Assembly (NCBI RefSeq): GCF_004362045.1
Contig: NZ_SNWX01000022.1
Location: 1 to 49,347, forward strand
Direction of reading: 5' to 3'
Source: Halanaerobium saccharolyticum
Lineage (GTDB): Bacteria; Bacillota; Halanaerobiia; Halanaerobiales; Halanaerobiaceae
DNA: 49,347 nt
The notes under the pieces are model-generated. The model was not told the origin of the DNA. It did not search any database and saw nothing but the letters and a program-made list of their open reading frames with translations. Shown here in pieces: positions 11,142 through 40,787 of the stretch. The translations under genes and the position numbers were made by a program. Each line of letters opens with the position of its first letter. The first letter of the stretch is position 1.

Positions 11142-11171
11142 ACTAAAATTCCTTTAATAGGAAGTGGTAGA

Positions 11172-14763: not shown

Positions 14764-14791
14764 TCTATTTCAGTTTAAGAATCTTTAAATT

Positions 14792-15916: not shown

Positions 15917-15926
15917 GGTGATAAAA

Positions 15927-20418: not shown

Positions 20419-20420
20419 TA

Positions 20421-20462
20421 TTTAAAGGGTGCCTTCAATAATATTTTGAGGGCACCTTTAAA
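20421..20462 (+). other. Intercistronic hairpin after the solute-binding protein
   Basis: TTTAAAGGGTGCCTTCAA (20421-20438) pairs with TTGAGGGCACCTTTAAA (20446-20462), one bulged base and one G-T pair, 7-nt loop. No T-run follows. Same position and style as the hairpin at 11111-11141. Confidence 0.75.
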
Positions 20463-20467
20463 ATGAG

Positions 20468-21364
20468 GTGATTGAGATTAAGATTAAAACAAATTCTCAG
20501 ATGGCTTCTCAGAAGGCTTTAATTATACTGGTCAGTGTTTTGATGATTTCATTTTACAGTGTATTTTCGATTGGACCAATGATTTATGCTTTTGTAGGAA
20601 GTTTTGCTGACTGGAATCCGATCAAAGATACTTTTCAATTTATTCAGTTTAATAACTATATCCATCTGTTTAATAACCAGCTGTTCTGGAAGTCATTAAA
20701 AAACACAATTTATTTTGTTGCAGTTGTAGTTACAGGAAGAGTAGTCCTGGGTTTTTTAATTGCTCTCGGACTAAATTCTATCAGAAAATATAAAAGTATG
20801 ATGCGCTCACTCTACTTTTTACCTGTTATTATGCCTATAGTAGCAGTTGCTTTAGTCTGGAAGTGGCTATATGATCCAAATATTGGCTTTTTTCAGATGG
20901 TATTATCTGCTTTTGGAATAACCAATGTTAAGTTTTTATTTGATCCAGATCTGGCTTTGCCTTCAATAATGCTGATGACTATCTGGAAAGATGTTGGCTA
21001 TGCAGTAATTATATTTTTAGCAGGTTTAATGGATGTACCTCAAAGTATTATTGAGGCTTCAGAGATTGATGGTGCCAATAAAAGACAGCAGCTCTGGAAT
21101 ATCATAATTCCAACTTTAAAACCAACTTTAATTTTTGTAATCATTACTTCTATTATTTCTTATTTTCAGACCTTTACTCAGATATTTATTATGACCAAAG
21201 GTGGACCTGGAACCTCTACTCATGTCCTGCTTTATATGATTTATCGTGAGGCTTTTCAGTATTATCGCTTTGGTTATGCTTCGGCAATTACTGTCTGTTT
21301 ATTTATTGTGATTATGATTGTAACCTTTATCCAGTTTAAAATTATGAAAGGGGGAGAAGTTTAA
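20468..21364 (+). CDS. Carbohydrate ABC transporter permease, MalF/UgpA type
   Basis: 298 residues with six membrane segments. The EAA loop that contacts the ATPase is visible as EASEIDGANKRQQLWNIIIPTLKPTLIF. Other landmarks: FVGSFADWNP near the N-terminus and MTKGGPGTSTHVLLYMIY. It pairs with the next permease, whose ATG overlaps this stop codon by 1 nt. The start is ambiguous: the GTG at 20468 lies within GAGGTGAT (20465-20472), which looks like the SD itself; that would point to an ATT at 20477 or to ATG 20501. Confidence 0.92.
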   Translation: MIEIKIKTNSQMASQKALIILVSVLMISFYSVFSIGPMIYAFVGSFADWNPIKDTFQFIQFNNYIHLFNNQLFWKSLKNTIYFVAVVVTGRVVLGFLIALGLNSIRKYKSMMRSLYFLPVIMPIVAVALVWKWLYDPNIGFFQMVLSAFGITNVKFLFDPDLALPSIMLMTIWKDVGYAVIIFLAGLMDVPQSIIEASEIDGANKRQQLWNIIIPTLKPTLIFVIITSIISYFQTFTQIFIMTKGGPGTSTHVLLYMIYREAFQYYRFGYASAITVCLFIVIMIVTFIQFKIMKGGEV

Positions 21365-22188
21365 TGACTAAAGCTAAATTATCAAAGGGGTTAATTTTTA
21401 CCCTCTTATTAATAGGTGGGATTGCAATGTCAATTCCTTTTATCTGGCTTTTATTTTCTTCTTTTAAACATAATAAAGAGATTATTGGTTATCCACCTAC
21501 TTTTTTTCCAGAAACATTTACCTTAACTCATTATTTGAATTTGAATTCTCGTTTTAATATTGGAAGATATTTTATGAACTCAGTTTTTCTTTCAACTGTA
21601 AAAACTGTACTTGCGGTATACACCAGCCTGCTCTGTGGTTATGTGCTGGCTAAATTCAATTTTTTCTTAAAGAATTTTCTTTTTAAAATTGTACTGTTTA
21701 CAATGATGGTTCCTTATATCATTACTGTAATCCCGGTTTATCAGATGATTACCGACTTTGGCTGGAAAGATCAGTACATAGCAATTATTGCTCCTACCAT
21801 CCTCTCCAGCTTTGGGATTTTTATGATGAGGCAGTATATAAAAACAGGGGTACCGGATGAACTTTTAGAAGCGGCAAGAATTGATGGTGCCGGGGAATTC
21901 AGGATATTCCATACAATTGTTATTCCCCTCTGTGTGAATATGATTTCAGCGCTGACAATTTTTCTATTTCTCTGGAACTGGGAGGATTTTCTCTGGCCTT
22001 ATCTGGTCTTAAATACCCAGGATAAATTCCCACTGGCAGTGGCCTTAAATATGTTCAGTGGTCAGAATACAACTAATTATGGTGGGCTTTTTGCAACCTC
22101 TCTGGTAACAATTTTGCCGGTTGTTATAGTTTATTTCATGTTCCAGAAGCGTTTTGTTGAAGGAATTTCAATGTCAGGTATTAAGTAG
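21364..22188 (+). CDS. Carbohydrate ABC transporter permease, MalG type
   Basis: 274 residues with six membrane segments. EAA motif EAARIDGAGEFRIFHTIVIPLCVNMISALTIFLF is clear, as is FLWNWEDFLWPYLVL after it and the C-terminal KRFVEGISMSGIK. It forms the heterodimeric channel with the preceding permease. No ATPase gene is found in this operon, so a shared MsmK/UgpC-type ATPase encoded elsewhere probably powers it. SD GGGGGAGA precedes the ATG. Confidence 0.93.
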   Translation: MTKAKLSKGLIFTLLLIGGIAMSIPFIWLLFSSFKHNKEIIGYPPTFFPETFTLTHYLNLNSRFNIGRYFMNSVFLSTVKTVLAVYTSLLCGYVLAKFNFFLKNFLFKIVLFTMMVPYIITVIPVYQMITDFGWKDQYIAIIAPTILSSFGIFMMRQYIKTGVPDELLEAARIDGAGEFRIFHTIVIPLCVNMISALTIFLFLWNWEDFLWPYLVLNTQDKFPLAVALNMFSGQNTTNYGGLFATSLVTILPVVIVYFMFQKRFVEGISMSGIK

Positions 22189-22199
22189 CAATTTTATAG

Positions 22200-25190
<2,991 letters not shown>

Positions 25191-25223
25191 AGACTGTGAT
25201 AATATTTTGTAATAGAGGAACTG

Positions 25224-27539: not shown

Positions 27540-27652
27540 ACTATTAATTGATAAAACATCAATTATGTGATATTTTTTATTTATAATCTTAAAAACTTTA
27601 GTTGTTTAACAGAATAAACCTTAAATATAAATTGAAGGAAAGGAGTGTTTAA

Positions 27653-28660
27653 ATGGCTACAATAACAGATATAGCAAAAAAAGCCAATGTATCTCCCTCA
27701 ACTGTTTCCAGAGTACTTAATGGCGATCAGAGTATAAGTGTTAAAGATGAAACCAGGAAGAAAATTTATGAAGCTGTAGAAGAACTAGAATATGTACCTT
27801 TAATTGAAAAATATTCAAAAAGAAAAAATACGACTGAGGAGCTGACTTTTTTAACTGTAACTTCTTTTAGTCAGGAAACAGAGATTGAGGATCCCTATTA
27901 TTTATCAATTTTCTATGGTGTAGAACTTGAATGTAAGGATAAAGAGATTAAGGTTGAAAAGATATATAAAAATAAAGATAAATTTGATTTTGATCCCGAA
28001 CTGAATGTTGATGGAATAATTGCTATTGGAAGTTTTTCTGAAGCTGAGATAAATAAATTTAGCAAATTGACTGATCATATAGTATTTGTGGATTCTGAGG
28101 TAGATAATCAAAAATATGACTCTATAGTTGTGAACCTTAAAAAAGTAATTGATAAAATCCTTGATTATTTATTTGAAAATGATTTTGAAGAGATAGGTTT
28201 TATCGGTGGTAGAGATGAAAACAAAAATGATATAATGGATCAGAGAGAAAAAGCCTTTATTGAATATATGAGCCACAGGGATTTATATAAGGAAGAGCAT
28301 ATTATCTTAGGAGAATTTTCCATTGATTCCGGCTATAAAATTGCAAAAGAGTCGATTGATATTGATAATCTGCCGGAAGCATATGTAGTTGCAAATGATT
28401 CAATGGCAATTGGAGTTTTAAGAGCCCTGCATGAAAAGGGAATTAAAGTTCCGGAAGATATTTCAATTATCAGTATTAATGATATTCCAACTTCTAAGTT
28501 TAGCATTCCCCCGCTAACTACAGTTAAGATCCACACTGAGTTTATGGGAATGATGGCAGTTAGAACTCTTAAAGAGAGAATCGAAAACAAAAGAGCTTTG
28601 CCAATAACGGTTAATATACCAACTGAAATGGTTATTCGCGGCAGTGTTAAATTGGAGTAA
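27653..28660 (+). CDS. LacI-family transcriptional regulator
   Basis: 335 residues. N-terminal HTH ATITDIAKKANVSPSTVSRVLNGD (1-25) with hinge region to about 60, then a periplasmic-binding-protein-like sensor domain with DGIIAIGSFSE, IGFIGGRDENK and AYVVANDSMAIGVLRALHEKGIKVPEDISIISIND. It follows the glycosidase operon in the same direction after a 113-nt gap and is its likely repressor. The shared TTTTASTAAAA palindromes upstream of the LysO-type gene and the ABC operon are the best candidate sites. SD AAAGGAG. Regulator-operator pairing is inference. Confidence 0.92.
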   Translation: MATITDIAKKANVSPSTVSRVLNGDQSISVKDETRKKIYEAVEELEYVPLIEKYSKRKNTTEELTFLTVTSFSQETEIEDPYYLSIFYGVELECKDKEIKVEKIYKNKDKFDFDPELNVDGIIAIGSFSEAEINKFSKLTDHIVFVDSEVDNQKYDSIVVNLKKVIDKILDYLFENDFEEIGFIGGRDENKNDIMDQREKAFIEYMSHRDLYKEEHIILGEFSIDSGYKIAKESIDIDNLPEAYVVANDSMAIGVLRALHEKGIKVPEDISIISINDIPTSKFSIPPLTTVKIHTEFMGMMAVRTLKERIENKRALPITVNIPTEMVIRGSVKLE

Positions 28661-28882: not shown

Positions 28883-28975
28883 ATGGAAAACTTTCCATTT
28901 AAAAAATAAAAAAGCATAAAAAACAGAAAATTTTCCACTTTTTCTCTTGACATCGTCAAAAATGAGTATTATAAT
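28883..28975 (+). promoter_or_regulatory. Promoter of the ygc-like operon with two related palindromes 40 bp apart
   Basis: TTGACA (28947-28952), 17 nt spacer, TATAAT (28970-28975): a consensus sigma-A promoter. Upstream, TGGAAAACTTTCCA (core of the perfect ATGGAAA-AC-TTTCCAT, 28883-28898) and the similar CAGAAAATTTTCCA (28924-28937) have centres exactly 40 bp apart. RpiR-type regulators often bind TGAAA/TTTCA-like palindromes, so the RpiR protein encoded at 40071 is a candidate ligand. Confidence 0.65.
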
Positions 28976-29040: not shown

Positions 29041-30537
29041 GTGAGTGTAATTGAAAAAGAACAGGAAGTTGTTGAGAATTTAGTTGATTTGTTGTCAGAA
29101 GAGCAGGTGAATACCAATAACGAGGATTTATATGAGGCATCAGTAGACAGATACAAAAAATATGCTTTTGCTCGTAATGCTCTTGATGTACCACAGCCAG
29201 TAGCAATTGTTTATCCGAATTCATCAGATGAGGTAAGCAAACTTTTACAATTCTGTAATGAAGAAAGAATTAATGTTATTCCAAGAAGTGGTGATACTTC
29301 TACAGAGGGGGGGTTAGAAAACTGGAAAGATATTACTGTTATAATTGATGCAGAAAATCTTAACAGAATAGTTGATATTGACACCTATAACATGCAGGCA
29401 ACTGTGCAGGCAGGTGTACCTTTAGAAGAACTGGAAGATGAACTTAGAGAAAAAGGCTTTACTACTGGACATTCTCCACAGTCAAAACCAGTTGCTAAAA
29501 TGGGGGGGCTTGTTGCAACCAGAAGTATTGGACAGCTCTCAACTCTTTATGGTGGAATTGAAGATATGGTAATTGGTTTAGAGTGTGTATTCCCTGATGG
29601 TCATATTTCTAAAATCAAAAATGTACCCAGAAGAGCAGGTGGCCCAGATATAAGACACATTGCAATTGGTAATGAAGGAACACTTTGTTACATAACAGAA
29701 GTTACAGTGAAAATATTTAAACATTATCCTGAAAATAATAAATTCTATGGTTATTTAACAGAAGATATTGAGACTGGAATTAAAGTTTTAAGAGAAGTAA
29801 TGGTTAATGGTTATCGTCCATCAGTTGCTAGAGCTTATTCTGAAGAAGATGCAAAACAGCATTTTTATCACTTCAGTAAAGATAAGTGTGTTTTAATATT
29901 AATGGCCGAAGGTCCGGAAAATATTGTTGAGGCCACAGGTGAAGCCGTCGAAGAAGCGGTGGATAAGTTTAGTGATGGCATTATAGAAGAGGTTGATAGT
30001 GAATTAATAGAGAACTGGTTTAATAATTTAAACTGGTCACAGCAGGATATAGAAGATGAGTATGAAGGTATGAAAGAAAATGATTCTCATGCTGGATTTA
30101 CTACTGAAATTTCTGCTGATTGGGGAACAATTCCTATAATCTATAACAATGTAATGGAAAGGATTAAAAATGAGTTTCCACGCGCTCATGAATTAACTTT
30201 ATTAGGTGGACATTCATCTCATAGTTATATAAATGGTACTAATTTATACTTTGTTTACAATTATGAAATTAACTGTGCTCCAGAAGATGAGTTAAGAGTT
30301 TATCACCACCCTATCCATAAGATTATAGTTGAAGAAACATTAAAACATGGCGGATCAATGTGTCACCATCATGGAATAGGAAAATATCGCAGTCAGTGGA
30401 CAAAAGAAGAACATGGATCAGCATATTATATGCTTGAAAAATTAAAAGAAGTTTTTGATCCTAATGGAATTATGAATTATGGATCAATTTATCCTAAAGA
30501 AGATGGAATCAAAAAATATATTAAAAAAGAAGAGTAA
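29041..30537 (+). CDS. FAD-linked dehydrogenase, GlcD/alkyl-DHAP-synthase-like (YgcU-like)
   Basis: 498 residues. An N-terminal FAD_binding_4 (PCMH) domain (about 50-230): PQPVAIVYPNSSDEV, VIPRSGDTST, VQAGVPLEEL, GGIEDMVIGLECVFPDG, AIGNEGTLCYITE. The C-terminal FAD-oxidase domain ends in GGSMCHHHGIGKYRSQW, a His-rich motif like that of alkyl-dihydroxyacetonephosphate synthase. It probably oxidises a hydroxy-acid or polyol; next-door EtfAB is the likely electron acceptor. It matches the role of E. coli YgcU. The GTG start has a good SD (GAGGTGG). First gene of a long operon. Confidence 0.85.
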   Translation: MSVIEKEQEVVENLVDLLSEEQVNTNNEDLYEASVDRYKKYAFARNALDVPQPVAIVYPNSSDEVSKLLQFCNEERINVIPRSGDTSTEGGLENWKDITVIIDAENLNRIVDIDTYNMQATVQAGVPLEELEDELREKGFTTGHSPQSKPVAKMGGLVATRSIGQLSTLYGGIEDMVIGLECVFPDGHISKIKNVPRRAGGPDIRHIAIGNEGTLCYITEVTVKIFKHYPENNKFYGYLTEDIETGIKVLREVMVNGYRPSVARAYSEEDAKQHFYHFSKDKCVLILMAEGPENIVEATGEAVEEAVDKFSDGIIEEVDSELIENWFNNLNWSQQDIEDEYEGMKENDSHAGFTTEISADWGTIPIIYNNVMERIKNEFPRAHELTLLGGHSSHSYINGTNLYFVYNYEINCAPEDELRVYHHPIHKIIVEETLKHGGSMCHHHGIGKYRSQWTKEEHGSAYYMLEKLKEVFDPNGIMNYGSIYPKEDGIKKYIKKEE

Positions 30538-30548
30538 AATTTAAAAAA

Positions 30549-30615
30549 GAGGTCTCCTTCTTTGAATTTAGCATTCACTACGGCAATAGTTTAAGCATTC
30601 AAAGAAGGAATCCTC
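30549..30615 (+). ncRNA. Structured leader element between the FAD dehydrogenase and MFS genes
   Basis: GAGG (30549-30552) and CCTTCTTTGAAT (30556-30567) pair with ATTCAAAGAAGG (30597-30608) and CCTC (30612-30615), leaving a symmetric 3x3 internal loop and a 29-nt apical loop. The loop has a possible ACTA/TAGT hairpin. AGCATTC occurs twice (30570-30576 and 30594-30600), so GAAT can pair with either copy, allowing two alternative folds. There is no T-run, so it is not a plain terminator. It may be an RNA processing site or cis-regulator; class unknown. The rest of 30616-30784 shows nothing else. Confidence 0.5.
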
Positions 30616-30784
30616 CTAAACCATTTTATCAGATATGAATTCAAATTCAAATAGATTTCTAAGTATGAGTAATTCAATTTATTTTTCTTGGGAAAATTTT
30701 GAATCTTATAAATTAAAAATTAAATCAACTTATTTATGAGATTTAATTATAAAATTTTATTTTTAATAAAAGAGGGAGGAAATT

Positions 30785-32083
30785 ATGTTAGATAATATAA
30801 AAAAGAAAGATCTAAATAGATATTTTCAGTTTACCTTAGTAGTTATTGCTGCTGGAGTTATTTATCCCCTGGTTTATTTAAGAACCCAATTTCAGGAAAC
30901 AATTCTTGCAGTATTTAATATGACAAATGGGCAGCTGAATAATATTTATTCTTTGTTGGGTTTAGTATTTATTTTTGGTTATTTACCAAGTGGTTTGTTG
31001 AGTGATAAATTTTCAGCTAAAAATCTGCTAGCCTTATCACTTTTGGGAACAGCAGGTGGTGGATTTTGGTTTGCCCAGGTTCCTGACCATCCACAGGTTC
31101 AGATCATCTTTGCTATTTGGGGCTTTTTTACAGTCTTTACTTTCTGGAGTGCCCATATGAAGTTGGTAAAAATGCTTTCAACAGATAAAGATGAAGGTAA
31201 GTTTTTTGGAATATTAGATGGTGGTAGAGGAGTTGTAGAAGCGGCTTTAGGAAGTGTGGCAGTTTTTATCTTTGCTAAAGTTCTTGGAGATGCGACAAAT
31301 ATAGCTGCAAAATCAGATGCTTTAATATCTGTAATCTATATGTATTCCTTTGTTTTATTAATTTCTTCTATTTTAGTATTTTTCTTCGTTAAAGAACATG
31401 ATAGTTCAAGTTCTAATGAAGAGGAAGGATATGAGCCGCCAAAATTAAAACTCTCAGATCTGAAGAAGATATTAAAAAATAAGTATATCTATCTGCAGGG
31501 TGGAATTGTTTTTATGGGATATTCAGTATTCTGGACCTCATATTATGTAGGTAGTTTTTTAGAAACAAATGTTGGAGCTACCTCTGTAGCTGTTGGTACA
31601 GTTATGGGTATAGTGCTCTGGATGAGGCCTGTAGGTGGTTTTCTTGGTGGTTATCTGGCAGATAAGATTGGAAAAGAAAAGACCATTGGAGGAGCACTTA
31701 CCGGGGGAGTTATCTGTCTTATCTTACTTGCCACCCTGCCGGTAAATCTTAACAATTATGTGTTTTACGGGTTGGCTATTGTTTTTGGTATTTTCTATTA
31801 TGCAATTCGGGGAACCTACTGGTCCTTATTAGGAAAAGCTAAAATAGATCCAGTAGTCATGGGTTCAGCAATAGGTCTGATTTCTTTAATTGGCTATTTC
31901 CCGGATATTGTTTTACCGCAGATGAATTCCTTTTTGTTTAACACCTTTGGTGGAAATGGGGGCTATAACGCCTACTTTATTGCAAGTGCTGTGTTAGGAG
32001 CTCTTGGTGTAGTTATTGCTGGAATTTATTATAAAGTTAATCAAAAAGAGAGAATAGAAAATGCTGAGGAAGAGGTTGCTTAG
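30785..32083 (+). CDS. MFS transporter (YgcS-like position)
   Basis: 432 residues with 12 membrane segments in two halves and a hydrophilic central loop (about 205-225). MFS landmarks: GYLPSGLLSDKFSAKN after segment 2 and GGYLADKIGKEKTIGG after segment 8. It most likely imports the organic acid or polyol processed by the neighbouring oxidoreductases. A single MFS gene between FAD dehydrogenase and etfB matches the E. coli ygc locus composition (YgcS). SD GGGAGGA; it is followed 7 nt later by etfB. Confidence 0.88.
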   Translation: MLDNIKKKDLNRYFQFTLVVIAAGVIYPLVYLRTQFQETILAVFNMTNGQLNNIYSLLGLVFIFGYLPSGLLSDKFSAKNLLALSLLGTAGGGFWFAQVPDHPQVQIIFAIWGFFTVFTFWSAHMKLVKMLSTDKDEGKFFGILDGGRGVVEAALGSVAVFIFAKVLGDATNIAAKSDALISVIYMYSFVLLISSILVFFFVKEHDSSSSNEEEGYEPPKLKLSDLKKILKNKYIYLQGGIVFMGYSVFWTSYYVGSFLETNVGATSVAVGTVMGIVLWMRPVGGFLGGYLADKIGKEKTIGGALTGGVICLILLATLPVNLNNYVFYGLAIVFGIFYYAIRGTYWSLLGKAKIDPVVMGSAIGLISLIGYFPDIVLPQMNSFLFNTFGGNGGYNAYFIASAVLGALGVVIAGIYYKVNQKERIENAEEEVA

Positions 32084-32090
32084 TTAAATC

Positions 32091-32885
32091 ATGAAAATTA
32101 TATGCCTGGTTAAATATGTACCAAATGTAGAAGATATAAAATATGACTATGAAGAGAATGTGCTGATAAGAGATAATGTAAAGCTGATTTTAAATCCAGA
32201 TGATGCAGCAGCAGTAGCTTATTCCTTAAAAGCAAAAGAAGTTAACCCAGATCTCAGTATTGAGGTTTTAACTATGGGTCCTAAATCAGTAAGACCATTT
32301 GTTGAGGATCTGCTGCGGAGAAACGTAAATAAAGCTACTATTATTTCTGATCCTGCTTTTGCAGGCAGTGATACTTATGCAACCAGCAAGATTCTTGCAA
32401 GTTATTTAAAAGAAAAGGAATATGACTGTATCTTAACGGGAAGTAAAAGCCTGGATGGGGATACAGCCCATGTTCCGGCTCAGCTGGGGGAATTGCTTAG
32501 TTTAAATCAGATGTCGAATATTATAAGTATTGATCAGGATTCTTTTAATGAAAAATCAGCTATTATTGAGGTTGAAAGTGGAGACAAAACACTTACCTAT
32601 AGGATGTCATTTCCTGCAATTTTAAGTTTCAGAAAAGAAACAGGTTATGAACTGCCATATATTAAGTATGAAAATATGTCACTGGATGTTAGTGATAAAT
32701 TAAACTTTATCTCAAATGAAGAACTCCAATTAGATGAAGATATGATAGGTCTAAAAGGTTCTCTGACAAGGGTTGCCAATACTTATAATAAAAACTTTAA
32801 AGAAAAGAATAAAATAGTAGTAAAAAATGATGATCAGGGTATTGATTATGTATATTCATTTTTAAAAAAGAAAGGCTTTGTTTAA
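32091..32885 (+). CDS. etfB: Electron transfer flavoprotein beta subunit (YgcR-like)
   Basis: 264 residues, ETF beta fold: KIICLVKYVPNVEDIKYD at the N-terminus, LNPDDAAAVAYSLKAKE, the nucleotide-binding block LTGSKSLDGDTAHVPAQLGELL and MSFPAILSFRKETGYELPY. It forms a heterodimer with the next gene product. Whether the beta subunit binds AMP (classic ETF) or a second FAD (bifurcating ETF) cannot be settled by eye. SD is weak; translation is probably coupled to the MFS gene, which ends 7 nt upstream. Confidence 0.92.
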   Translation: MKIICLVKYVPNVEDIKYDYEENVLIRDNVKLILNPDDAAAVAYSLKAKEVNPDLSIEVLTMGPKSVRPFVEDLLRRNVNKATIISDPAFAGSDTYATSKILASYLKEKEYDCILTGSKSLDGDTAHVPAQLGELLSLNQMSNIISIDQDSFNEKSAIIEVESGDKTLTYRMSFPAILSFRKETGYELPYIKYENMSLDVSDKLNFISNEELQLDEDMIGLKGSLTRVANTYNKNFKEKNKIVVKNDDQGIDYVYSFLKKKGFV

Positions 32886-32886
32886 G

Positions 32887-33843
32887 ATGAAAAAAAGTTT
32901 AGTTTATATAGATCCAGAAAACGTTCAAAATTCGATAGAAATTCTAGAGGTAGTAGCTCAAATTCACCAGGAAGAAGATTTCAAAAGTTATGGAGCTCTA
33001 ATCAATAACTCAACCTCTATCCAGGGATTACATCAATTTGATTATATAATTAATATTCAGAATCAAAACTTAAAAAATTATGACCCGGTTGCAGTTACGG
33101 ATGTTATGGAGCAGTTGAATAAGAAATATAACTTTGACAGTATTATTATTCCGGCAACACATTTCGGGAGAATGCTTGCTCCACGCCTGGCAATGAGGCT
33201 GCATGTCGGACTGGTTGCTGATGTAACTAAAATCAATCATAACGGAGAAAATCTTGAACTGGTAAGACCTGCGTTTAGTGGAAGAATAATGGCGGGAATT
33301 ATTACTGAAGCCAGAAAACCAATAATGTTAAGTGTTAGACAAAATGTTTTTGCTTATGATGTTCAGGCTGATAAAGAGGCTGAAGTTATTGATTATCAGC
33401 CTGAAAACTTTAAGCAGGGTGAGATTGAATTATTAAATATTCAGGAGAATAATATTTCTTATGATATTAGAGAAAGTGAAATTCTTGTTTCAGGAGGTGG
33501 TGGAACTCTTAAAAATTTTGACCAGATAAAATTATTGGCTGATAAATTAAATGCTGAAGTGTCTGCAAGTAGAAAGATAATTGATAATGGAAAAGCTGAT
33601 AGAAATATTCAAGTTGGTCAATCAGGAAAAACAGTAAGTCCAGACTTATATATTGCTCTTGGAATTAGTGGAGCCATAGAACATGTTGCTGGCTTAAAAA
33701 ACATAGATAATATTATTGCAGTTAATATAAATAAAAGTGCTCCTATCTGCAGTCTTTCAGATATTGTTGTTGAAGGTGATGCGTTGGAGTTTGTTAAAAA
33801 ATTATCAGATAAGATTGATGAAAATGAAGATCAAAAAAATTAG
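32887..33843 (+). CDS. etfA: Electron transfer flavoprotein alpha subunit (YgcQ-like)
   Basis: 318 residues from ATG 32887, 1 nt after the etfB stop; the upstream in-frame TTG 32878 lies inside etfB. The C-terminal FAD domain is intact: VSGGGGTLKNFDQIKLLADKL, the SRKIIDNGKADRNIQVGQSGKTVSPDLYIALGISGAIEHVAGL block and AVNINKSAPICSLSDIVVEGDA. It carries electrons from the FAD dehydrogenase encoded at 29041. No ETF-quinone oxidoreductase gene is nearby, so the final acceptor is unknown; in an anaerobe confurcation or bifurcation with ferredoxin is possible by analogy with the lactate dehydrogenase/Etf complex of Acetobacterium. Confidence 0.92.
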   Translation: MKKSLVYIDPENVQNSIEILEVVAQIHQEEDFKSYGALINNSTSIQGLHQFDYIINIQNQNLKNYDPVAVTDVMEQLNKKYNFDSIIIPATHFGRMLAPRLAMRLHVGLVADVTKINHNGENLELVRPAFSGRIMAGIITEARKPIMLSVRQNVFAYDVQADKEAEVIDYQPENFKQGEIELLNIQENNISYDIRESEILVSGGGGTLKNFDQIKLLADKLNAEVSASRKIIDNGKADRNIQVGQSGKTVSPDLYIALGISGAIEHVAGLKNIDNIIAVNINKSAPICSLSDIVVEGDALEFVKKLSDKIDENEDQKN

Positions 33844-33854
33844 GGGGATTTAAA

Positions 33855-34634
33855 ATGGAAATTATGGACTTTAATATGGATATGTTTAATTTAGAAGGAA
33901 AGAATGCTCTAGTTACAGGAGGAAATACAGGTCTTGGTCAGGCGTTTTCAACTGCACTTGCAAAAGGCGGAGCTAATGTTATGGCAGTGAGCTTACAGGG
34001 TGATGGAGGAGAAACAAAGGAAATGATTGAAGCTTGTGGGAATGAATATAAGTTTATGGAAGCGGATATTACTGAGGATGGCAACTGCAAAAAAGCTGTT
34101 GATGCTGTTGTAGACGAATGGGGAAGTATTGATATCCTGGTAAACTGTGCTGGTATTTCTATAAATGTTAGAGATGTTACCAAATATACCAGAAAAGAAT
34201 GGGATAAAATGGTTTCTGTAAATCTAACTGCTGCCTTTGAGATGATCCATGAAGCTTCTAAGTACATGATTGAACAGGAAAGTGGAAAAATTATTAATAT
34301 CGGTTCTTTATTTTCATTCTTAGGTGGACAGTGGTCACCTGCTTATGCATCCACCAAACATGGTATTGTTGGCCTGACTAAAGCTATGTGTGATGAGTTA
34401 GCTCAGTTCAATATCCAGGTTAATACAATAGCGCCTGGTTACTTTAAAACTGAACTAACCGAAGAAACTAGAAATGATGAAGAAAAGAATCAAACTATTT
34501 TATCTCATATTCCAGCAAATAGATGGGGAGACAAAGCTGATCTAATGGGAGCATGTGTATTTTTAGCAAGTCCTGCTTCTGATTATGTAAATGGAACTGT
34601 ACTTACTGTTGATGGTGGATACTTAGTACGATAA
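33855..34634 (+). CDS. Short-chain dehydrogenase/reductase (YgcW-like)
   Basis: 259 residues, classical SDR. Cofactor motif TGGNTGLGQAF near residue 22, NCAGI, active-site Ser in NIGSLFSF, YxxxK as YASTKHG, and PGYFKTELT. The stretches GGQWSPAYA, HIPANRWGD and FLASPASDYVNG, with C-terminal DGGYLVR, agree closely with my recollection of E. coli YgcW, a 2-deoxygluconate-dehydrogenase-like protein. It probably oxidises or reduces a polyol/keto-sugar acid with NAD(P). SD GGGGGA; 11-nt gap from etfA. Confidence 0.92.
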   Translation: MEIMDFNMDMFNLEGKNALVTGGNTGLGQAFSTALAKGGANVMAVSLQGDGGETKEMIEACGNEYKFMEADITEDGNCKKAVDAVVDEWGSIDILVNCAGISINVRDVTKYTRKEWDKMVSVNLTAAFEMIHEASKYMIEQESGKIINIGSLFSFLGGQWSPAYASTKHGIVGLTKAMCDELAQFNIQVNTIAPGYFKTELTEETRNDEEKNQTILSHIPANRWGDKADLMGACVFLASPASDYVNGTVLTVDGGYLVR

Positions 34635-34661
34635 AATATAATAGAAAAGGAGAATTCTAAA

Positions 34662-36101
34662 ATGTCAAAATTTATTTTAGGTATAGATCAGGGAACACAA
34701 AGTACAAAAGTAACTATTTTTGATACTTCGGGCCATAAAATAGTGTCACACACTGAACAGCTAAGAGAAATTCAATTAGGAGAAAATGGTGAAGCACTTC
34801 ATCCAGATGATGATTTATGGACCAGTCTTCAGTTAACCTGTAACCGGTTATTTGAAAAGTTTGAAGGAAATAAAGATGACATTATTGGGGTCGGCCTATT
34901 ATCTATTAGATGCTGTAGAGCAGTTATGAAAGAAAATGGTGAATTGTTTTCACCGGTTCAAAGTTGGATGGATACCAGGCTTTCGCGGCCATATGAGCCT
35001 AAAAGTGATGAGATTAGATATGTAACTACTACTACAGGTTATTTAACACACAGGTTAACAGGAGAGACTAAAGATACAAGATCAAATTATGTAGGACCCT
35101 GGCCAATTGACCCTGAAACTTTAGAATGGTATGACAACGGGAAAAAATTCACAACTCCAAAAGAAATGTTATTTGAGTTAGTAGACCCGTCAACTGTTTT
35201 AGGTGTGGTTACTGAAAAAGCTGCTGAATTAACTGGGATTCCCGCAGGTACACCAGTAGTTTCTACTTCGAATGATAAGGCAGTTGAAGGTTTAGGTGCA
35301 GGATTGTTAAATGATGGGACAGTACTTGTTTCTTTAGGTACATACATTACATCTATGATGTTTGGAGATAGTTATGATTCTGAACCTAATAATTATTTTA
35401 CTAATCCAGGGGCAACACCCGGCTCATGGTTATATGAAAGTAACGGTATTAGAAGGGGAATGTCTACTGTAACCTGGATTAAAGATCTTCTGGGAAGTGA
35501 TATTCTAAAAGAAGCAGATAAAAGAGGGATTTCTCCAGAAAATTATTTGAACGAACTGGCTGAAGATGTTCCTGCAGGAAGTGAAGGCTTATATACAATC
35601 TTACACTGGTTACCAAGACCAAGCAAACCATATGAAAGAGGAATTATGTTAGGCTTTAATGGTAAACATAAAGGCCCTCATATGTTTAGATCAATTCTTG
35701 AAGGTATTGCTATGACAATGAAAAATAATGCTCAGGCTATGTGTGATGAATTGGGTATTGATTTAAACGAGATTGTTGTAAGTGGTGGTGGTTCCAAAGG
35801 GGATTTGTTTATGGAAATATTTTCTGATGTATTTGGAGTTCCAGCACATAGAAATGAGGTCAATGGTGCGGCTGGACTGGGATCTGCTATTTGTGCAGCT
35901 TTAGCTCTTGATGTATATGATACTCGGGAAGAAGCAATAAAAAATATGGTTAGACATGAAGATACTTTTGAACCAAATTTAGAAAATCATGAGTTTTATA
36001 AAGAAATTAATGAAAAAGTGTATCAGCATATTCCAGATCATAATGAAGAACTCTTAAAAAGATCGAATCAGATTATAAATGAGGAAATGGTAACAGTTTA
36101 A
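34662..36101 (+). CDS. FGGY-family carbohydrate kinase (YgcE-like)
   Basis: 479 residues, two actin-like ATPase domains. N-terminal phosphate loop GIDQGTQSTKVTIFD; second-domain SLGTYITSMM; adenosine-site block VVSGGGSKGDLFMEIFSDVFGVPAHRNEVNGAAGLGSAI. Substrates of FGGY kinases include xylulose, ribulose, gluconate and glycerol; this one is not assignable by eye. In the window it closes the ygcU/S/R/Q/W/E-like gene set and probably phosphorylates the product of the SDR step. SD AAAGGAG; a hairpin follows at 36116. Confidence 0.9.
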   Translation: MSKFILGIDQGTQSTKVTIFDTSGHKIVSHTEQLREIQLGENGEALHPDDDLWTSLQLTCNRLFEKFEGNKDDIIGVGLLSIRCCRAVMKENGELFSPVQSWMDTRLSRPYEPKSDEIRYVTTTTGYLTHRLTGETKDTRSNYVGPWPIDPETLEWYDNGKKFTTPKEMLFELVDPSTVLGVVTEKAAELTGIPAGTPVVSTSNDKAVEGLGAGLLNDGTVLVSLGTYITSMMFGDSYDSEPNNYFTNPGATPGSWLYESNGIRRGMSTVTWIKDLLGSDILKEADKRGISPENYLNELAEDVPAGSEGLYTILHWLPRPSKPYERGIMLGFNGKHKGPHMFRSILEGIAMTMKNNAQAMCDELGIDLNEIVVSGGGSKGDLFMEIFSDVFGVPAHRNEVNGAAGLGSAICAALALDVYDTREEAIKNMVRHEDTFEPNLENHEFYKEINEKVYQHIPDHNEELLKRSNQIINEEMVTV

Positions 36102-36115
36102 TCAACTTAATAAAA

Positions 36116-36153
36116 TATAAACTGGCAAATGTATTATAATTTGCCAGTTTATA
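36116..36153 (+). other. Hairpin between the kinase and BCCT genes
   Basis: TATAAACTGGCAAAT (36116-36130) pairs perfectly with ATTTGCCAGTTTATA (36139-36153), 8-nt loop. A short T-run follows only 7 nt later (36160-36165), so it may be a weak terminator or attenuator dividing the ygc-like genes from BCCT-surE. Confidence 0.65.
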
Positions 36154-36188
36154 TTAGATATTTTTACATATTTTAAGGGGGGGTTATT

Positions 36189-37775
36189 TTGAAAAATAAT
36201 AAAATAAACAATAATGAAGGAAATCCGGATTCAAAAAAAACAACTCAGAAAATACGCCCATATGTATTTTATCCTACATTTATTTTGCTTATCTCAACAA
36301 TAGTTTTAAATTTTACAAATGAGAATTTATTTTTGGAAATTACTTCAGCTGCTAAGAATTTTATGGTTGTTGATATGGGCTGGTTGTTTAGTATTGCTGG
36401 GGGATTAAGTGTTATTATAATTATCTTCGTTTATTTTTCTCCTCTTGGAGAAGTGAAATTAGGTGGAGAAGATGCTGAACCAATGCTTAGCAGACCATCC
36501 TGGTTTGCAATTACTCTCTGTACAACTATTGCTGCAGGAATTTTATTTTGGGGAACAGCAGAACCAATGTGGCATTTTGCCTATCCACCAGAGTCTTTGG
36601 GAATTAAACCAAGATCTGTAGAAGCCGCTAAATTTGCAATGGAAACAATGTATTTACACTGGACTTTTATTCCTTATGCGATTTATACAGTTCCAACCAT
36701 AGTTTTTGGTTTTGCCTATTATAATATGAAAAGAACTTTTAGTGTAGGTTCACAAATAGCACCTTTAGTAACTCAAAAGAGGCAGAATAGATTTAATAAC
36801 ATAATTGATGCGGTTGTACTTTTCACTGTTGCTACAGGTATTTCCTCTTCTTTTGGTACTGCAGTAATGAATATGGGTGGAGGAATGAATGCTCTATTTA
36901 ATATAAATAATAGCAAATCACTCTGGGTTATGATTACAATAGTTGGGACAATAGCTTTTATAATTTCTTCAGGAACAGGTCTGATGAAAGGAATTAGAGT
37001 TCTTTCAAATGTTAATATGTATATTTACTATATAATAATTGCTGTATTACTAATATTGGGTCCATCAGTTTATTTTTTAAGAGTTGGCACAGAGACTTTT
37101 GGTGTATTTTTAGACAATATTTTTAGTAGAGCACTTTTTACAGGAGGAACAGCCGGTGATCAATGGGCATCAGACTGGACTATGTTTTACTGGTCTAACT
37201 GGATGGCCTGGGCACCTGTTTCTGCAGTTTTTCTTGCCAGAGTTGCTTATGGTTATAAAATTAAAGATGTTATTTTAATGAATTTTGTATTTCCGAGTAT
37301 ATTTAGTACTATCTGGATGACAATATTATCAGGTACTACTATTAATTATCAAATGACAGGAAAAGTTGATGTTTTGGGAATCATGAGTGAACAGGGTTCG
37401 GGTGCAGCAGCTTATGCTGTTTTAGGTGAGCTTCCCTTTTCTGGATTGATAATTGGCCTTTATCTCCTGGCTGTTATGATTTCATTTATTACAGCTACTG
37501 ATTCAACTACTAATGCAATGTCTAGTATTAGTACTGCTGGAATAAAGATTGGAGATGAAGAAGCCCCTTTATTAATTAAACTAATTTGGGGAATAATCAT
37601 TGGTGGAATAGCTCTTGTATTTATTACAACTCTAGGATTGGATGGAATAAAAATGATGTCCTATTTGGGTGGATTCCCTGCACTTTTCTTAGGTTTATTC
37701 AGTATAGCATCTTTAGTATTAATAATGAGAAGGCCAGAAAAATTTGATATAAAAGTTGAAGAAAAGGATGATTAA
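36189..37775 (+). CDS. BCCT-family transporter
   Basis: 528 residues, 12 predicted membrane segments, LeuT-like fold. Recognised by FWGTAEPMWHFAYPP and the conserved Trp segment TMFYWSNWMAWAPVSAVFLARVAYG (from about residue 330). BCCT proteins carry betaine, choline or carnitine. The glycine-rich sodium/substrate loop of BetP (GMGIG before FWG) reads TIAAG here, so substrate or coupling may differ from osmolyte uptake. The hydrophilic N-terminus is about 25 residues. TTG start with a strong G-rich SD (AAGGGGGGG). surE starts 3 nt after its stop codon, indicating a two-gene unit. Confidence 0.88.
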   Translation: MKNNKINNNEGNPDSKKTTQKIRPYVFYPTFILLISTIVLNFTNENLFLEITSAAKNFMVVDMGWLFSIAGGLSVIIIIFVYFSPLGEVKLGGEDAEPMLSRPSWFAITLCTTIAAGILFWGTAEPMWHFAYPPESLGIKPRSVEAAKFAMETMYLHWTFIPYAIYTVPTIVFGFAYYNMKRTFSVGSQIAPLVTQKRQNRFNNIIDAVVLFTVATGISSSFGTAVMNMGGGMNALFNINNSKSLWVMITIVGTIAFIISSGTGLMKGIRVLSNVNMYIYYIIIAVLLILGPSVYFLRVGTETFGVFLDNIFSRALFTGGTAGDQWASDWTMFYWSNWMAWAPVSAVFLARVAYGYKIKDVILMNFVFPSIFSTIWMTILSGTTINYQMTGKVDVLGIMSEQGSGAAAYAVLGELPFSGLIIGLYLLAVMISFITATDSTTNAMSSISTAGIKIGDEEAPLLIKLIWGIIIGGIALVFITTLGLDGIKMMSYLGGFPALFLGLFSIASLVLIMRRPEKFDIKVEEKDD

Positions 37776-37778: not shown

Positions 37779-38591
37779 TTGCTAAAAGCTAAAGATAAAC
37801 CACTGATTTTAATTACAAATGATGATGGAATTAATTCTCCAGGTCTTAAAGCTCTTGCTGAAGCGATTAACCCAATTTGCAATTTGTTGATAGCAGCACC
37901 TATGGAACAGCAGACCGGGATGGGAAGGGGTTTTCTCAAAGGTGATGAGGTTGGTATTATTGAAAAGAAAAATATCCAGCTCAATGATCAAATAGTTGAG
38001 GCCTATGCTGTTAATTCATCACCGGCACAGGCTGTAGCTCATGCTGTTTTAGAACTGACAGATAAAAAACCTGATTATTGTATTAGTGGAGTTAATTATG
38101 GTGAAAATCTTGGTTTAGCATTTACCTGCAGTGGAACTTTAGGTGCTGCCTTTGAAGCTGACAGTTTGGGAATACCTGCTGTTGCTTTTTCGAGAGCTTT
38201 TCCTTTTAATAAGCAGAAATCTAATAATTTTAGTAGTTTAGATTGGGAAGCAGAAAAATATCATATCAGAAATATTATTAAAAATATTACAGCAAATGGC
38301 TTTCCCCAAGATGTTCGCATTTTAAATGTCAATTTTCCAATAGATATAGATCAGGAAACAAAGGTGCGCATTACGAGGCAGGCTTATATGAATTATGCTC
38401 AATATATGAAACCGGAAGATAGAAATTTTTCTAAAGGGCATAGTCTAAAATGGAAATTGAATCCTGAAATAGAAAAATTAAAAAAAGATACTGATATTTA
38501 TGCAGTGCATTTTGATAAAATAATCTCTATAACACCTTTGAATTCAAGGATGTCTGTAGATACAGATAATTATTATCAGAAGTGGTCTTAA
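37779..38591 (+). CDS. surE: SurE-like 5'/3'-nucleotidase (acid phosphatase)
   Basis: 270 residues. SurE is a divalent-metal phosphatase acting on nucleoside monophosphates and other phosphate esters. Metal site NDDG (14-17), SSPAQAV and SGVNYGENLG are present, as is GTLGAAFEADSLGIPAVAFSRA. The TTG start has a moderate SD (AAGGAT). Most surE genes sit next to pcm or housekeeping genes; here it is tightly coupled to a BCCT transporter, suggesting a dedicated role on a transported or intracellular phosphate ester. No signal peptide. Confidence 0.88.
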   Translation: MLKAKDKPLILITNDDGINSPGLKALAEAINPICNLLIAAPMEQQTGMGRGFLKGDEVGIIEKKNIQLNDQIVEAYAVNSSPAQAVAHAVLELTDKKPDYCISGVNYGENLGLAFTCSGTLGAAFEADSLGIPAVAFSRAFPFNKQKSNNFSSLDWEAEKYHIRNIIKNITANGFPQDVRILNVNFPIDIDQETKVRITRQAYMNYAQYMKPEDRNFSKGHSLKWKLNPEIEKLKKDTDIYAVHFDKIISITPLNSRMSVDTDNYYQKWS

Positions 38592-38651
38592 CTATTGTCA
38601 ATTTTTAAAAAATTATTTTACACTATAATTAAAGTAAGTTAGGTGAAACTA

Positions 38652-39968
38652 ATGAAAAATGTTGGGGACATGGATCTGGATTACTTGTGTACAGGATGTG
38701 GAGGTTGTGAAGTAATATGTCCAACTGATGCAATAAAAATAAAGTTAAAAAATGATGTATATCTTCCTCAGGTAGATGACAATAAATGTATAAAATGTAA
38801 TAAATGTTTATTAGGATGTCCTGGGTTATCATTAAATTCAAAGAAATATTCAGATATGATTCTTAAGGTAGAGGAATCTACCAAGGAAGATTTTATGCTT
38901 GGTAAATTCATATCAAATTATCTGGCTTATTCAACTGACAAAAAATTAAGGTTTGAAGCTGCTACAGGTGGTCTGGCAACCAGTATATTAATTTATCTAT
39001 TTAATGAAAATATTATTAATGGAGCAGTAGTTACAAAAATGAATGAGCAGGATAAAACGAAAAGCAAAACTTTTGTGGCTCAAAGTATTGAAGAGATCAG
39101 AAGTGCTAAAACTTCAAAATATTGTTCTACTCATCCATTATCAACATTAAAGGAATTAAAAAAAACCAGTAAAGATAAGAAATTTGCATTTGTTGGTCTG
39201 CCCTGCCATATTCATGGTTTGAGAAAGATTCAGGAACAAGAAAAATGGGTTAAAGATAAAATCATATTTTCAATTGGAATTTTATGTACCCACTCTGTTG
39301 ATTATTCAGGGACGAGACTTATATTGGATAAAATGGCCTGTGGTAAAGAAAATTTAATTGGAATCCAATATCGTGGTAATGGCTGGCCAGGTTCAGCGGC
39401 AATTGAATATAAAGATAAAAAAATATCAATTCCGTTAGAAAACTACTGGAATCCTTATTTTGGGCCTTATTTTTTTACTCCATATAGATGCATCAGCTGT
39501 AATGATTTAACAGCTGAATTAGCAGATGTTTCTCTAGGAGATGCTTTGTTAAAAGATATTGAAGAAAATGATGATCAAGGGACTTCAATTGTTATCAGCC
39601 GAAATAATTTTGTAGAGAAGATTATAAAAAAAATGGCAGATAAAAATTTGCTTTCTATAGAAAAAATTTCAAAAAATATAATTAAAGAATCTCAACAAAA
39701 CATACTTATAAGAAAAAAAGTAACTTTAGCTTATAGGTTGAGCTTATTTAGATTTTTTTCAAAGGCAATACCTGAAACTGAAGATAAAATATCTTTTTCT
39801 AATGATATGATTAGTCAAAAAACAAAAGGCTATTTGGGAGCCTTTTTAATCTGGTTTAATTCTTATTTAAGCAAAACAAAGATTGGCTATAACATTATTA
39901 AATTATTACCAGTTAATTTTTTAAAAAAATATTCATATTATGTTAATAGAATAGCAGGTCGAAAATAG
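38652..39968 (+). CDS. Iron-sulfur flavoprotein of the FrhB/FdhB (F420 hydrogenase beta) family
   Basis: 438 residues from ATG 38652, with SD AGGTGA; the in-frame GTG 38643 lies within that SD. The N-terminus holds two [4Fe-4S] ferredoxin motifs: C13-C16-C19-C23-P and C46-C49-C52-C56-P. The FrhB N and C domains follow, with AATGGLATSILIYLF, GLPCHIHGLRKIQ, the ILCTHSVDY block and a further Cys pair in YRCISCNDLTAELADVSLGDAL. In bacteria, members transfer electrons between ferredoxin and flavin-bound substrates and are often misnamed F420 enzymes. A TATAAT at 38624-38629 suggests its own promoter. It could serve the Etf/FAD system upstream, but that is speculative. Confidence 0.82.
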   Translation: MKNVGDMDLDYLCTGCGGCEVICPTDAIKIKLKNDVYLPQVDDNKCIKCNKCLLGCPGLSLNSKKYSDMILKVEESTKEDFMLGKFISNYLAYSTDKKLRFEAATGGLATSILIYLFNENIINGAVVTKMNEQDKTKSKTFVAQSIEEIRSAKTSKYCSTHPLSTLKELKKTSKDKKFAFVGLPCHIHGLRKIQEQEKWVKDKIIFSIGILCTHSVDYSGTRLILDKMACGKENLIGIQYRGNGWPGSAAIEYKDKKISIPLENYWNPYFGPYFFTPYRCISCNDLTAELADVSLGDALLKDIEENDDQGTSIVISRNNFVEKIIKKMADKNLLSIEKISKNIIKESQQNILIRKKVTLAYRLSLFRFFSKAIPETEDKISFSNDMISQKTKGYLGAFLIWFNSYLSKTKIGYNIIKLLPVNFLKKYSYYVNRIAGRK

Positions 39969-40070: not shown

Positions 40071-40787
40071 TTGATTAATATTGATTTAGGTAATCTAAAT
40101 GATTTTGAAAAAGAAATATATGAAAACTTACTTGAATATTCAGAGGAGAATCCAGCTTTTCGGATTAAAGAGGCAGCAGAAATATGTGATTGTTCTGTGT
40201 CAAAAATATCTAAATATGTAAAAAAATTAGGTTTTGATAACTATAAGCAGTATATTGCTTTTTTATATGATGAAGAAATACCTGATAAAGAACAGTCAGA
40301 TGAATTAACAAGACTTAAAAAGTTTATTGATGATTTTGATATGACAATGATTAATGAATTTATCGAATTGATTAATGATCATGAAAAAGTTGTTCTATTT
40401 GGGTATGGTCCTTCTGGGGCTGTTACCGAGTATTTTGAATATAAATTTAGGACTTGTACAGACAAAATGGTTATTTCTTTGTCTGACGAGACTTCTATAG
40501 CATCGATGCTTGACAAAAAAACTTTACTATTAATATTTACTGCGACTGGTTCTTTTTGTTCTTTTAAGCCTATATATGAGGAGGCTAAGGGGAAAGGAGC
40601 AAAAGTGGCTATATTGATAGAAGAATATAATACTTCACTTTTTAATCAATGCGATCGAATTTTTTGGTTATCTAAATATAATCAACCAGATTATTTAGAA
40701 CCATATCAAAAAACAAGAACAGTATTTTTTATATTCATTGAAGAAGTTATCCGGCAGATGATATTAAATAAAAAATCTAAAGAATAA
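40071..40787 (+). CDS. RpiR-family transcriptional regulator
   Basis: 238 residues. N-terminal HTH_6 domain (about 1-75; RIKEAAEICDCSVSKISKYVKKLGFDNYKQ) and C-terminal SIS sugar-phosphate-binding domain (about 95-225; KVVLFGYGPSGAVTEYFEYKF, LLLIFTATGSFCSFKPIYEEAK). RpiR proteins sense phosphosugars. It is the only regulator near the ygc-like operon and may act at the palindromes at 28883 and 28924. TTG start at 40071; the SD is poor and nearby alternatives exist, so the start is uncertain. Very A/T-rich gene. Confidence 0.88.
   Translation: MINIDLGNLNDFEKEIYENLLEYSEENPAFRIKEAAEICDCSVSKISKYVKKLGFDNYKQYIAFLYDEEIPDKEQSDELTRLKKFIDDFDMTMINEFIELINDHEKVVLFGYGPSGAVTEYFEYKFRTCTDKMVISLSDETSIASMLDKKTLLLIFTATGSFCSFKPIYEEAKGKGAKVAILIEEYNTSLFNQCDRIFWLSKYNQPDYLEPYQKTRTVFFIFIEEVIRQMILNKKSKE

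What the first reader, a model, noticed from the sequence alone, without database searches (positions are those of the whole stretch)
29041..36101. Anaerobe version of the uncharacterised E. coli ygc locus
FAD oxidase, MFS, EtfB, EtfA, SDR and FGGY kinase correspond one to one with YgcU, YgcS, YgcR, YgcQ, YgcW and YgcE; the SDR shares long stretches with YgcW as I remember it. Presence in a distant anaerobe shows that the set moves and works as a unit. FAD oxidase plus EtfAB resembles the lactate dehydrogenase/Etf complex, so flavin-based bifurcation or confurcation is possible. The kinase and SDR suggest a sugar acid or polyol.
Basis: partly seen in the sequence, partly recalled or inferred. 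Interest (0 to 1): 0.75.

Follow-up and report, generated by a model that had tools for sequence, protein, structure and literature searches.

The report
Betaine-linked version of E. coli ygc
A Halanaerobium-type salt-loving anaerobe carries a six-gene operon built around the same three unstudied enzymes as the E. coli ygc locus, and its neighbours in many bacteria suggest that these enzymes take apart a betaine-type nutrient, possibly the ether-linked head of betaine lipids.

Summary
The six genes are real and form a bounded unit: a 12/12 promoter match at 28947-28975 and a 17-pair stem-loop just after the kinase. The one-to-one match to the ygc set is only partly right. SDR, FAD enzyme and kinase are YgcW, YgcU and YgcE (62, 57, 45%; reciprocal best among the E. 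coli proteins compared). The MFS is YqcE-like, not YgcS. EtfB's best E. coli hit is FixA, and anaerobe EtfA forms a group apart from YgcQ. The conserved core is SDR + FAD enzyme + kinase; electron carriers and transporters are exchanged. By sequence the FAD enzyme is closer to the ether-making enzyme AGPS than to LctD, with AGPS active-site residues kept in 54 of 54 rows; the fold alone does not decide. BCCT carriers lie within 10 kb in 10 of 34 genomes against 0.51 expected. Six of 57 loci also hold an aspartase-like lyase and a betaine-aldehyde-type dehydrogenase. Proposal: catabolism of a trimethylammonium compound with a glycerol ether, such as deacylated DGTS. No biochemistry; the betaine link is the firmer half, the ether a bold inference.

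The parts
28884..28897 (.). palindrome TGGAAAACTTTCCA, likely operator of the RpiR regulator
   Evidence: only exact match of TGGAAAANTTTCCA in the genome; palindromes of this type lie upstream of the core operon in 23 of 25 loci with this RpiR
28926..28936 (.). GAAAATTTTCC, likely second operator
   Evidence: region conserved in L080 and L007
28947..28975 (+). promoter-like TTGACA-17-TATAAT, 12 of 12
   Evidence: 58 promoter-like sites in the region against 67.5 in shuffles; this is the only 12/12
29041..30537 (+). FAD enzyme, YgcU orthologue, AGPS-like (VAO fold)
30785..32083 (+). MFS transporter, YqcE-like
32091..32885 (+). EtfB of bifurcating type (LDGDT, Gly123)
32878..33843 (+). EtfA of the anaerobe group
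33855..34634 (+). SDR dehydrogenase, YgcW orthologue, KduD-like
34662..36101 (+). FGGY kinase, YgcE orthologue
36114..36155 (+). terminator-like stem-loop, 17 pairs, T-rich tail
   Evidence: 4 such sites in the region, 4.9 expected from shuffles; this one is the longest and lies directly after the kinase stop
36189..37775 (+). BCCT transporter, of the subfamily shared with lyase-linked BCCTs of Bacilli
37779..38591 (+). SurE-type phosphatase, follows BCCT in all four Halanaerobium operons read
38643..39968 (+). FrhB-like iron-sulphur flavoprotein, possible electron partner
40071..40787 (+). RpiR/SIS-type regulator of the cluster found at 25 of 57 core loci

Best explanation
A catabolic operon for a trimethylammonium (betaine-type) compound that carries a glycerol moiety on an ether; best candidate glyceryl-trimethylhomoserine, the deacylated core of the betaine lipid DGTS. 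MFS and/or BCCT take it up. The KduD-like SDR oxidises the secondary alcohol next to the free CH2OH, the FGGY kinase phosphorylates that CH2OH, giving an alkyl-dihydroxyacetone phosphate, and the AGPS-like FAD enzyme runs AGPS chemistry backwards (Tyr403 takes the C1 proton, flavin N5 holds the triose, the alcohol leaves, water enters), giving DHAP and homoserine betaine. EtfAB takes electrons from the flavin, either because cleavage is oxidative or because the FAD enzyme does the alcohol oxidation: to NAD with ferredoxin in the anaerobe, through YgcRQ-YgcNO to quinone in E. coli. Some Bacilli and a Vibrio have, next to the core, a betaine-aldehyde-type dehydrogenase and an altered aspartase (Bacilli also an alcohol dehydrogenase) that would release fumarate and trimethylamine; the window genome lacks these and would export the betaine, perhaps through the BCCT. 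Shown: gene content, homology, co-localisation, operator. Inferred: substrate, order of steps, every reaction.
For: Core: SDR in 54, kinase in 53 of 57 loci chosen by the FAD enzyme, with MFS, BCCT, OpuC and Etf types exchanged. FAD enzyme nearest to AGPS by sequence and by Foldseek (ranks 1-31); AGPS R419 and Y578 (mutants named) and the HHH triplet match R264, Y403, H442-444, invariant in 54 of 54. AGPS chemistry from passages of PMC3509576. BCCT within 10 kb in 10 of 34 genomes, expected 0.51; 7 of 27 after dropping same-genus repeats, expected 0.40; in four genomes it is the only BCCT. Four Bacilli loci run SDR-FAD-kinase-BCCT behind one palindrome. Aspartase-like lyase and ALDH (best model betaine-aldehyde dehydrogenase) beside the core in 6 of 57 loci. 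Elsewhere the same lyase module sits with a BCCT 62-80% identical to the Bacilli core-linked ones (4 of 5 modules read in G171, G174, G341, G051, G257) and with a histidine kinase, sigma-54 regulator and glycine-betaine-type binding protein (3 of 5), the trio that also follows the core in L022. The lyase has N145 to S, T104 to I, Q191 to C against AspA in 12 of 12. YgcS is 57.7% identical to the MFS of a lyase module. Regulators RpiR (25 loci) or GlpP-like (26 loci) fit a phosphorylated triose-like signal.
Against: No biochemistry or growth data. Enterobacterial loci, E. coli included, have no BCCT, OpuC or lyase beside the core. AGPS needs no electron carrier (PMC3509576), so ether exchange alone does not explain the Etf; most Bacilli loci have no Etf. 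VIA-align puts D-lactate dehydrogenases slightly above AGPS (Z 27.8 against 25.2), from a model of pTM 0.73. The SDR is KduD-like and the kinase nearest to XylB/LsrK models, which also suits a sugar acid or ketose. Lyase module and core meet in only 2 of 299 genomes of the G038 order (lyase 6, core 23). The window genome has no close lyase (best 33%) and no MttB. Nothing in the loci marks a glycerol ether or DGTS directly.
Confidence: 0.38

Rival explanations
1. One reading: a sugar-acid or polyol pathway. The FAD enzyme is an Etf-linked dehydrogenase of the GlcD/LctD kind that oxidises a 2-hydroxy acid or polyol; SDR and kinase process the product; BCCT and OpuC genes lie near because halophile genomes are rich in osmolyte carriers.
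For: SDR 44% to KduD and best NCBIfam models KduD/gluconate 5-dehydrogenase; kinase of XylB/LsrK type; fold Z highest with D-lactate dehydrogenases; E. coli loci carry no betaine gene; an Etf partner is typical of a true dehydrogenase.
Against: AGPS residues invariant in 54 of 54 and R264, Y403, H442, H443 absent from GlcD; BCCT enrichment 10 against 0.51 reckoned with the real number of BCCTs per genome; BCCT inside the palindrome-led operon in four Bacilli.
Confidence: 0.27
2. A free betaine is the substrate (carnitine-like, homoserine betaine, or glycerophosphocholine) and no ether is cleaved; the FAD enzyme oxidises a hydroxyl of it and the core makes a betaine-bearing keto compound.
For: Same transport evidence; homoserine betaine is a real dissolved osmolyte (PMC13403184, passages); the E. 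coli YgcS paralogue YaaU lies beside caiT and fixABCX.
Against: The lyase module that would handle homoserine betaine occurs without the core in 4 of its 6 genomes, so the core is not needed for it; an FGGY kinase and a GlpP-like regulator suit a glycerol-like part.
Confidence: 0.2
3. The core makes ether lipids in the forward direction: AGPS-like enzyme plus SDR as alkyl-DHAP reductase.
For: AGPS and a keto reductase are successive steps of ether-lipid synthesis (recalled); AGPS likeness.
Against: The operons hold carriers, an RpiR or GlpP-like regulator and Etf, and I saw no recurring acyltransferase or fatty-alcohol gene; E. coli is not known for ether lipids (recalled).
Confidence: 0.05

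Closest known systems
E. coli K-12 ygcQRSU-W / yqcE-ygcE locus
   Same: SDR, FAD enzyme and FGGY kinase are orthologous (62, 57, 45%); an Etf pair and a YqcE-type MFS are present
   Different: one strand and one operon here; Etf of another group; no YgcN, YgcO, YgcP or YgcS; BCCT, SurE, FrhB-like and RpiR added
Alkyl-DHAP synthase (AGPS), PDB 4bby, 2uuu
   Same: closest solved sequence; R419, Y578 and HHH positions kept
   Different: about 20-27% identity over the structure match; bacterial operon with Etf, carriers and regulator; cleavage direction is inferred
Acetobacterium LctBCD lactate dehydrogenase/Etf complex, PDB 7qh2
   Same: VAO-fold FAD subunit with EtfAB of bifurcating type
   Different: the FAD enzyme scores 73 bits only against LctD; the genome has another EtfAB on contig C18 beside a frame that matches GlcD at 35%
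Aspartate ammonia-lyase (AspA/AspB), for the partner module of Bacilli
   Same: family and SS loop of aspartase
   Different: amine-pocket positions N145, T104, Q191 changed in 12 of 12; not in the window genome

Membership tests
ygc-type locus | orthologous SDR + FAD enzyme + FGGY kinase | tested here: met
   (reciprocal best among 23 E. coli proteins)
ygc-type locus | YgcS-type MFS | tested here: not met
   no hit to YgcS at E 1; best is YqcE
ygc-type locus | YgcR/YgcQ-type Etf | tested here: not met
   EtfB best with FixA; EtfA in a separate group
ygc-type locus | YgcN/YgcO electron outlet | tested here: not met
   and the map: no such gene in the unit
AGPS (alkyl-DHAP synthase) | active-site Arg419, Tyr578, His615-617 | tested here: met
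AGPS (alkyl-DHAP synthase) | ether exchange on acyl-DHAP | not testable with these tools
   needs an enzyme assay
AGPS (alkyl-DHAP synthase) | structure closer to AGPS than to D-lactate dehydrogenase | tested here: inconclusive
   Foldseek ranks AGPS first, VIA-align D-lactate dehydrogenases slightly higher
LctBCD-type lactate dehydrogenase/Etf complex | FAD subunit nearest to LctD/GlcD | tested here: not met
   AGPS 182, LctD 73 bits; YgcU 574, YdiJ 86, GlcD 74 bits
bifurcating Etf | small residue (Gly123) for beta-FAD in EtfB | tested here: met
   9 of 9 anaerobe EtfB; YgcR-type rows also keep Gly, so it does not separate them
bifurcating Etf | second FAD bound and NAD/ferredoxin coupling | not testable with these tools
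   needs the protein
BCCT carriers | over the Pfam cut-off, Trp-rich segment kept | tested here: met

The most novel reading that the evidence does not exclude
The ygc core, E. coli K-12 included, is a widespread bacterial route that opens the glycerol ether of betaine lipids (DGTS) by AGPS chemistry run in reverse, and its partner module holds a new aspartase-like enzyme that releases trimethylamine and fumarate from aspartate betaine.
Probability: 0.27. Interest if true: 0.88.

Novelty: new variant of a known kind. Interest (0 to 1): 0.7.

Why it matters
The ygc locus is among the stretches of E. coli K-12 without an assigned function; the searches listed no paper whose title or abstract start assigns one. 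Here it gets a concrete, cheap-to-test substrate class, and the test can be made in E. coli K-12, in Halanaerobium, or in Bacilli whose operon also holds the BCCT. If the ether reading holds, it is a bacterial way to break betaine-lipid ethers without oxygen, and a new source of trimethylamine; the listings showed no description of either in the library held.

Tried and rejected
Rejected: MFS = YgcS. Rejected: EtfAB as orthologues of YgcRQ. Rejected: the LacI gene at 27653 as regulator of the unit; by family it is EbgR and lies behind an Ebg-type glycoside cluster, while an RpiR of the core-linked cluster lies at 40071. Weak test: co-occurrence of lyase and core in the G038 order, 2 of 299 genomes with both against 0.46 expected by simple product. 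Led nowhere: MttB in the own genome (0 matches); the FGGY review PMC3245297 does not name YgcE (find, 0 places). The L007 member of the 'OpuCA' cluster is a polar amino-acid ABC gene, not OpuC, so I count OpuC only where permease and binding-protein clusters are also present (L019, L022, L025, L060; L021 has the permease cluster only). Palindrome search: of 18 distinct sites of TGGAAAANTTTCCA in 18 genomes, 10 are at core operons and 8 elsewhere; 7 of the 18 genomes have none; of the perfect form TGGAAAATTTTCCA, 8 of 8 are between RpiR and the core. Loci L011 and L015 have the RpiR but no site by my pattern; L021 and L063 were not scored because a longer reverse frame hid the FAD gene in my ORF picker; L057 and L058 (21% identity) were left out before all counts. 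A notebook entry to 83 gives 1 of 31 for loci without RpiR; recounted it is 1 of 30. The headgroup route was written in the notebook after I had seen the plain annotations 'lyase family', 'aldehyde dehydrogenase' and 'alcohol dehydrogenase' but before the subfamily scan, so it is a half-blind prediction. The roles of AspA pocket positions, the KduD reaction and AGPS facts beyond PMC3509576 are recalled.
Full report
WHAT IS THERE. The window (contig C22 of a 3.36 Mb genome) holds six same-strand genes at 29041-36101 with Pfam families FAD_binding_4 + FAD-oxidase_C, MFS_1, ETF, ETF + ETF_alpha, adh_short and FGGY. The host is a Halanaerobium relative: the closest named locus is H. polyolivorans, 90% in the FAD enzyme. 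The genes lie 247, 7, -8, 11 and 27 bp apart. A perfect sigma-70-type promoter match lies at 28947-28975 and a 17-pair stem-loop with a T-rich tail at 36114-36155, just behind the kinase stop. After that come BCCT, SurE, FrhB-like and RpiR genes. Four of 38 genomes of the order, this one included, have a full-length FAD enzyme; in the three others the order FAD-MFS-EtfB-EtfA-SDR-kinase-BCCT-SurE is the same.

COMPARISON WITH E. COLI. Against the K-12 ygc region, FAD/YgcU, SDR/YgcW and kinase/YgcE are clear orthologues (56.8, 62.2, 45.0%), reciprocal best among 23 E. coli proteins. The MFS matches YqcE and not YgcS. EtfB is nearer to FixA than to YgcR. An EtfA tree of 34 rows puts 22 enterobacterial-type and 8 anaerobe rows in two groups, both 100/100, with FixB, YdiR and the genome's other EtfA on the anaerobe side. 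So the set is not one to one; the Etf was replaced or recruited separately.

THE CONSERVED UNIT. One genome-contig scan gave 52 loci (two at 21% identity were left out); with the window, K-12 and five plasmid loci this makes 57. SDR is in 54, kinase in 53 (some losses are contig ends). Divergence of the three is correlated (r 0.79-0.83 over 51 loci). Carriers vary: YqcE-type 26, the window's MFS type 11, YgcS-type 23, BCCT 9, OpuC permease plus binding protein 4. Etf is of two types (22 and 8 EtfA). Regulators are RpiR in 25 and GlpP-like in 26 loci, one or the other in 48 of 57.

OPERATOR. Upstream of the core operon 23 of 25 RpiR loci, but only 1 of 30 scored loci without it in the fetched stretch (L007, whose promoter region is alike), carry palindromes of the GGAAAnnTTTC / GAAAnnTTTCC type. 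In the window these are at 28884-28897 and 28926-28936, in a stretch kept in L080 and L007. In 18 genomes the perfect form TGGAAAATTTTCCA occurs 8 times, always between RpiR and the core; the looser form has 8 of 18 sites elsewhere. This points to a dedicated regulator and names 40071-40787 as the window's.

THE FAD ENZYME. Its best PDB sequence match is AGPS (182 bits), then glycolate oxidase (102), D-lactate dehydrogenases (about 81) and LctD (73). AGPS Arg419 and Tyr578, named as mutants in PDB titles, and HHH615-617 align with R264, Y403 and H442-444 (display), all invariant in 54 of 54 family rows; GlcD has none of R264, Y403, H442, H443. A model of the window protein (pLDDT 74, pTM 0.73) matches AGPS first in Foldseek, whereas VIA-align gives D-lactate dehydrogenase Z 27.8, LctD 26.4 and AGPS 25.2. 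Sequence and active site speak for AGPS; the fold alone does not decide. PMC3509576 (passages) describes AGPS: a tyrosine takes the C1 proton, flavin N5 forms an adduct with the DHAP part, and an alcohol is added; no net redox.

THE BETAINE LINK. BCCT genes lie within 10 kb of the FAD gene in 10 of 34 genomes; from the real BCCT numbers 0.51 were expected (Poisson P 2e-10), or 7 of 27 against 0.40 after dropping same-genus repeats (P 2e-7). In G011, G012, G013 and G042 it is the genome's only BCCT. The window BCCT is 37-51% identical to the other core-linked and lyase-linked BCCTs but 30% to its own second BCCT and 23% to CaiT. Six loci (five Bacilli, one Vibrio) have an aspartase-like lyase and an ALDH within the stretch read, and the five Bacilli also a Zn-ADH. 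Family scans of the L018 set give aspartate ammonia-lyase (504 bits, cut-off 510), betaine-aldehyde dehydrogenase as best ALDH model (529, cut-off 669) and an NDMA/class III-type ADH; none reaches its curated cut-off. Having seen the plain annotations, I wrote the expected route (homoserine betaine, aldehyde, aspartate betaine, fumarate + trimethylamine) in the notebook before that scan. The lyase keeps the SS loop but changes three positions of the aspartase amine pocket in 12 of 12 sequences, while the aspartase-like neighbour genes of two modules keep the Asn. Of five modules read where the core is not adjacent, 4 carry a BCCT of this subfamily and 3 a histidine kinase, sigma-54 regulator and OpuAC-type binding protein, the trio also found behind the core in L022; the fifth (L126), like Peribacillus L096, has a YgcS-like MFS, and L096 adds malic enzyme.

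ETF. The window EtfB has LDGDT with Gly123; PMC12630350 (passages) calls this glycine invariant in bifurcating Etfs, with bulkier residues in canonical ones. 9 of 9 anaerobe EtfB keep Asp-Gly; FixA and YdiQ do not; most YgcR-type rows read EGQN or EGNS, Gly kept but the rest lost.

MECHANISM. My reading: SDR oxidises HOCH2-CH(OH)-CH2-O-R at C2 (KduD oxidises the alcohol next to a CH2OH, recalled), the kinase phosphorylates the CH2OH, and the FAD enzyme cleaves the resulting alkyl-DHAP to DHAP and R-OH. R is proposed to be homoserine betaine, making the substrate deacylated DGTS. What does not fit smoothly is Etf, since AGPS chemistry needs no acceptor; either cleavage here is oxidative or the FAD enzyme performs the alcohol oxidation. 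Homoserine betaine is a measured dissolved metabolite (PMC13403184, passages) and DGTS is made by a marine Phaeobacter under phosphate stress (PMC10132767, passages).

VERDICT. Core unit: near certain. Betaine-type substrate: about 0.6. Glycerol ether of a betaine: about 0.3. The papers listed give no function for ygc (search listings only).

Noticed in passing
L078:9053-16462 (G013), L082:7831-15260 (G015), L083 (G020): A second AGPS-like FAD enzyme (34-35% to the window's) in other Halanaerobium genomes, in an operon with a GntR regulator, a 377-aa protein without Pfam match, a DeoC/LacD aldolase, an FGGY kinase and a GlpA-like flavoprotein (L083 is a short contig).
   Followed up: partly
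L018, L023, L025, L053, L061, L062, L096, L124-L128: Aspartase-like lyase + betaine-aldehyde-type ALDH + ADH module with altered amine pocket; a candidate trimethylamine-releasing enzyme.
   Followed up: yes
L128:6665-9264 and 13350-14537; L125:5792-6988 and 11136-13757: A mandelate-racemase-family gene (L128), a second ALDH before the lyase and a GbsB/lactaldehyde-reductase-like iron ADH behind it: perhaps an epimerase and a choline-type step for betaines.
   Followed up: no
L050:13621-19140: Photobacterium: a second FAD oxidase and a ferredoxin-domain EtfA between the core and a BCCT.
   Followed up: no
window 19141-28660: Sugar ABC transporter, GH2 (Ebg/LacZ type), GH65 and an EbgR-like LacI regulator, a separate glycoside cluster just before the operon.
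   Followed up: no
window 38643-39968: FrhB-like protein with ferredoxin domain at the end of the extended operon, also in L007 and (in two frames) L081: possible electron partner of the Etf.
   Followed up: no
window 13705-17135: mtnA and methylthioribose kinase near a sugar-type ABC ATPase.
   Followed up: no
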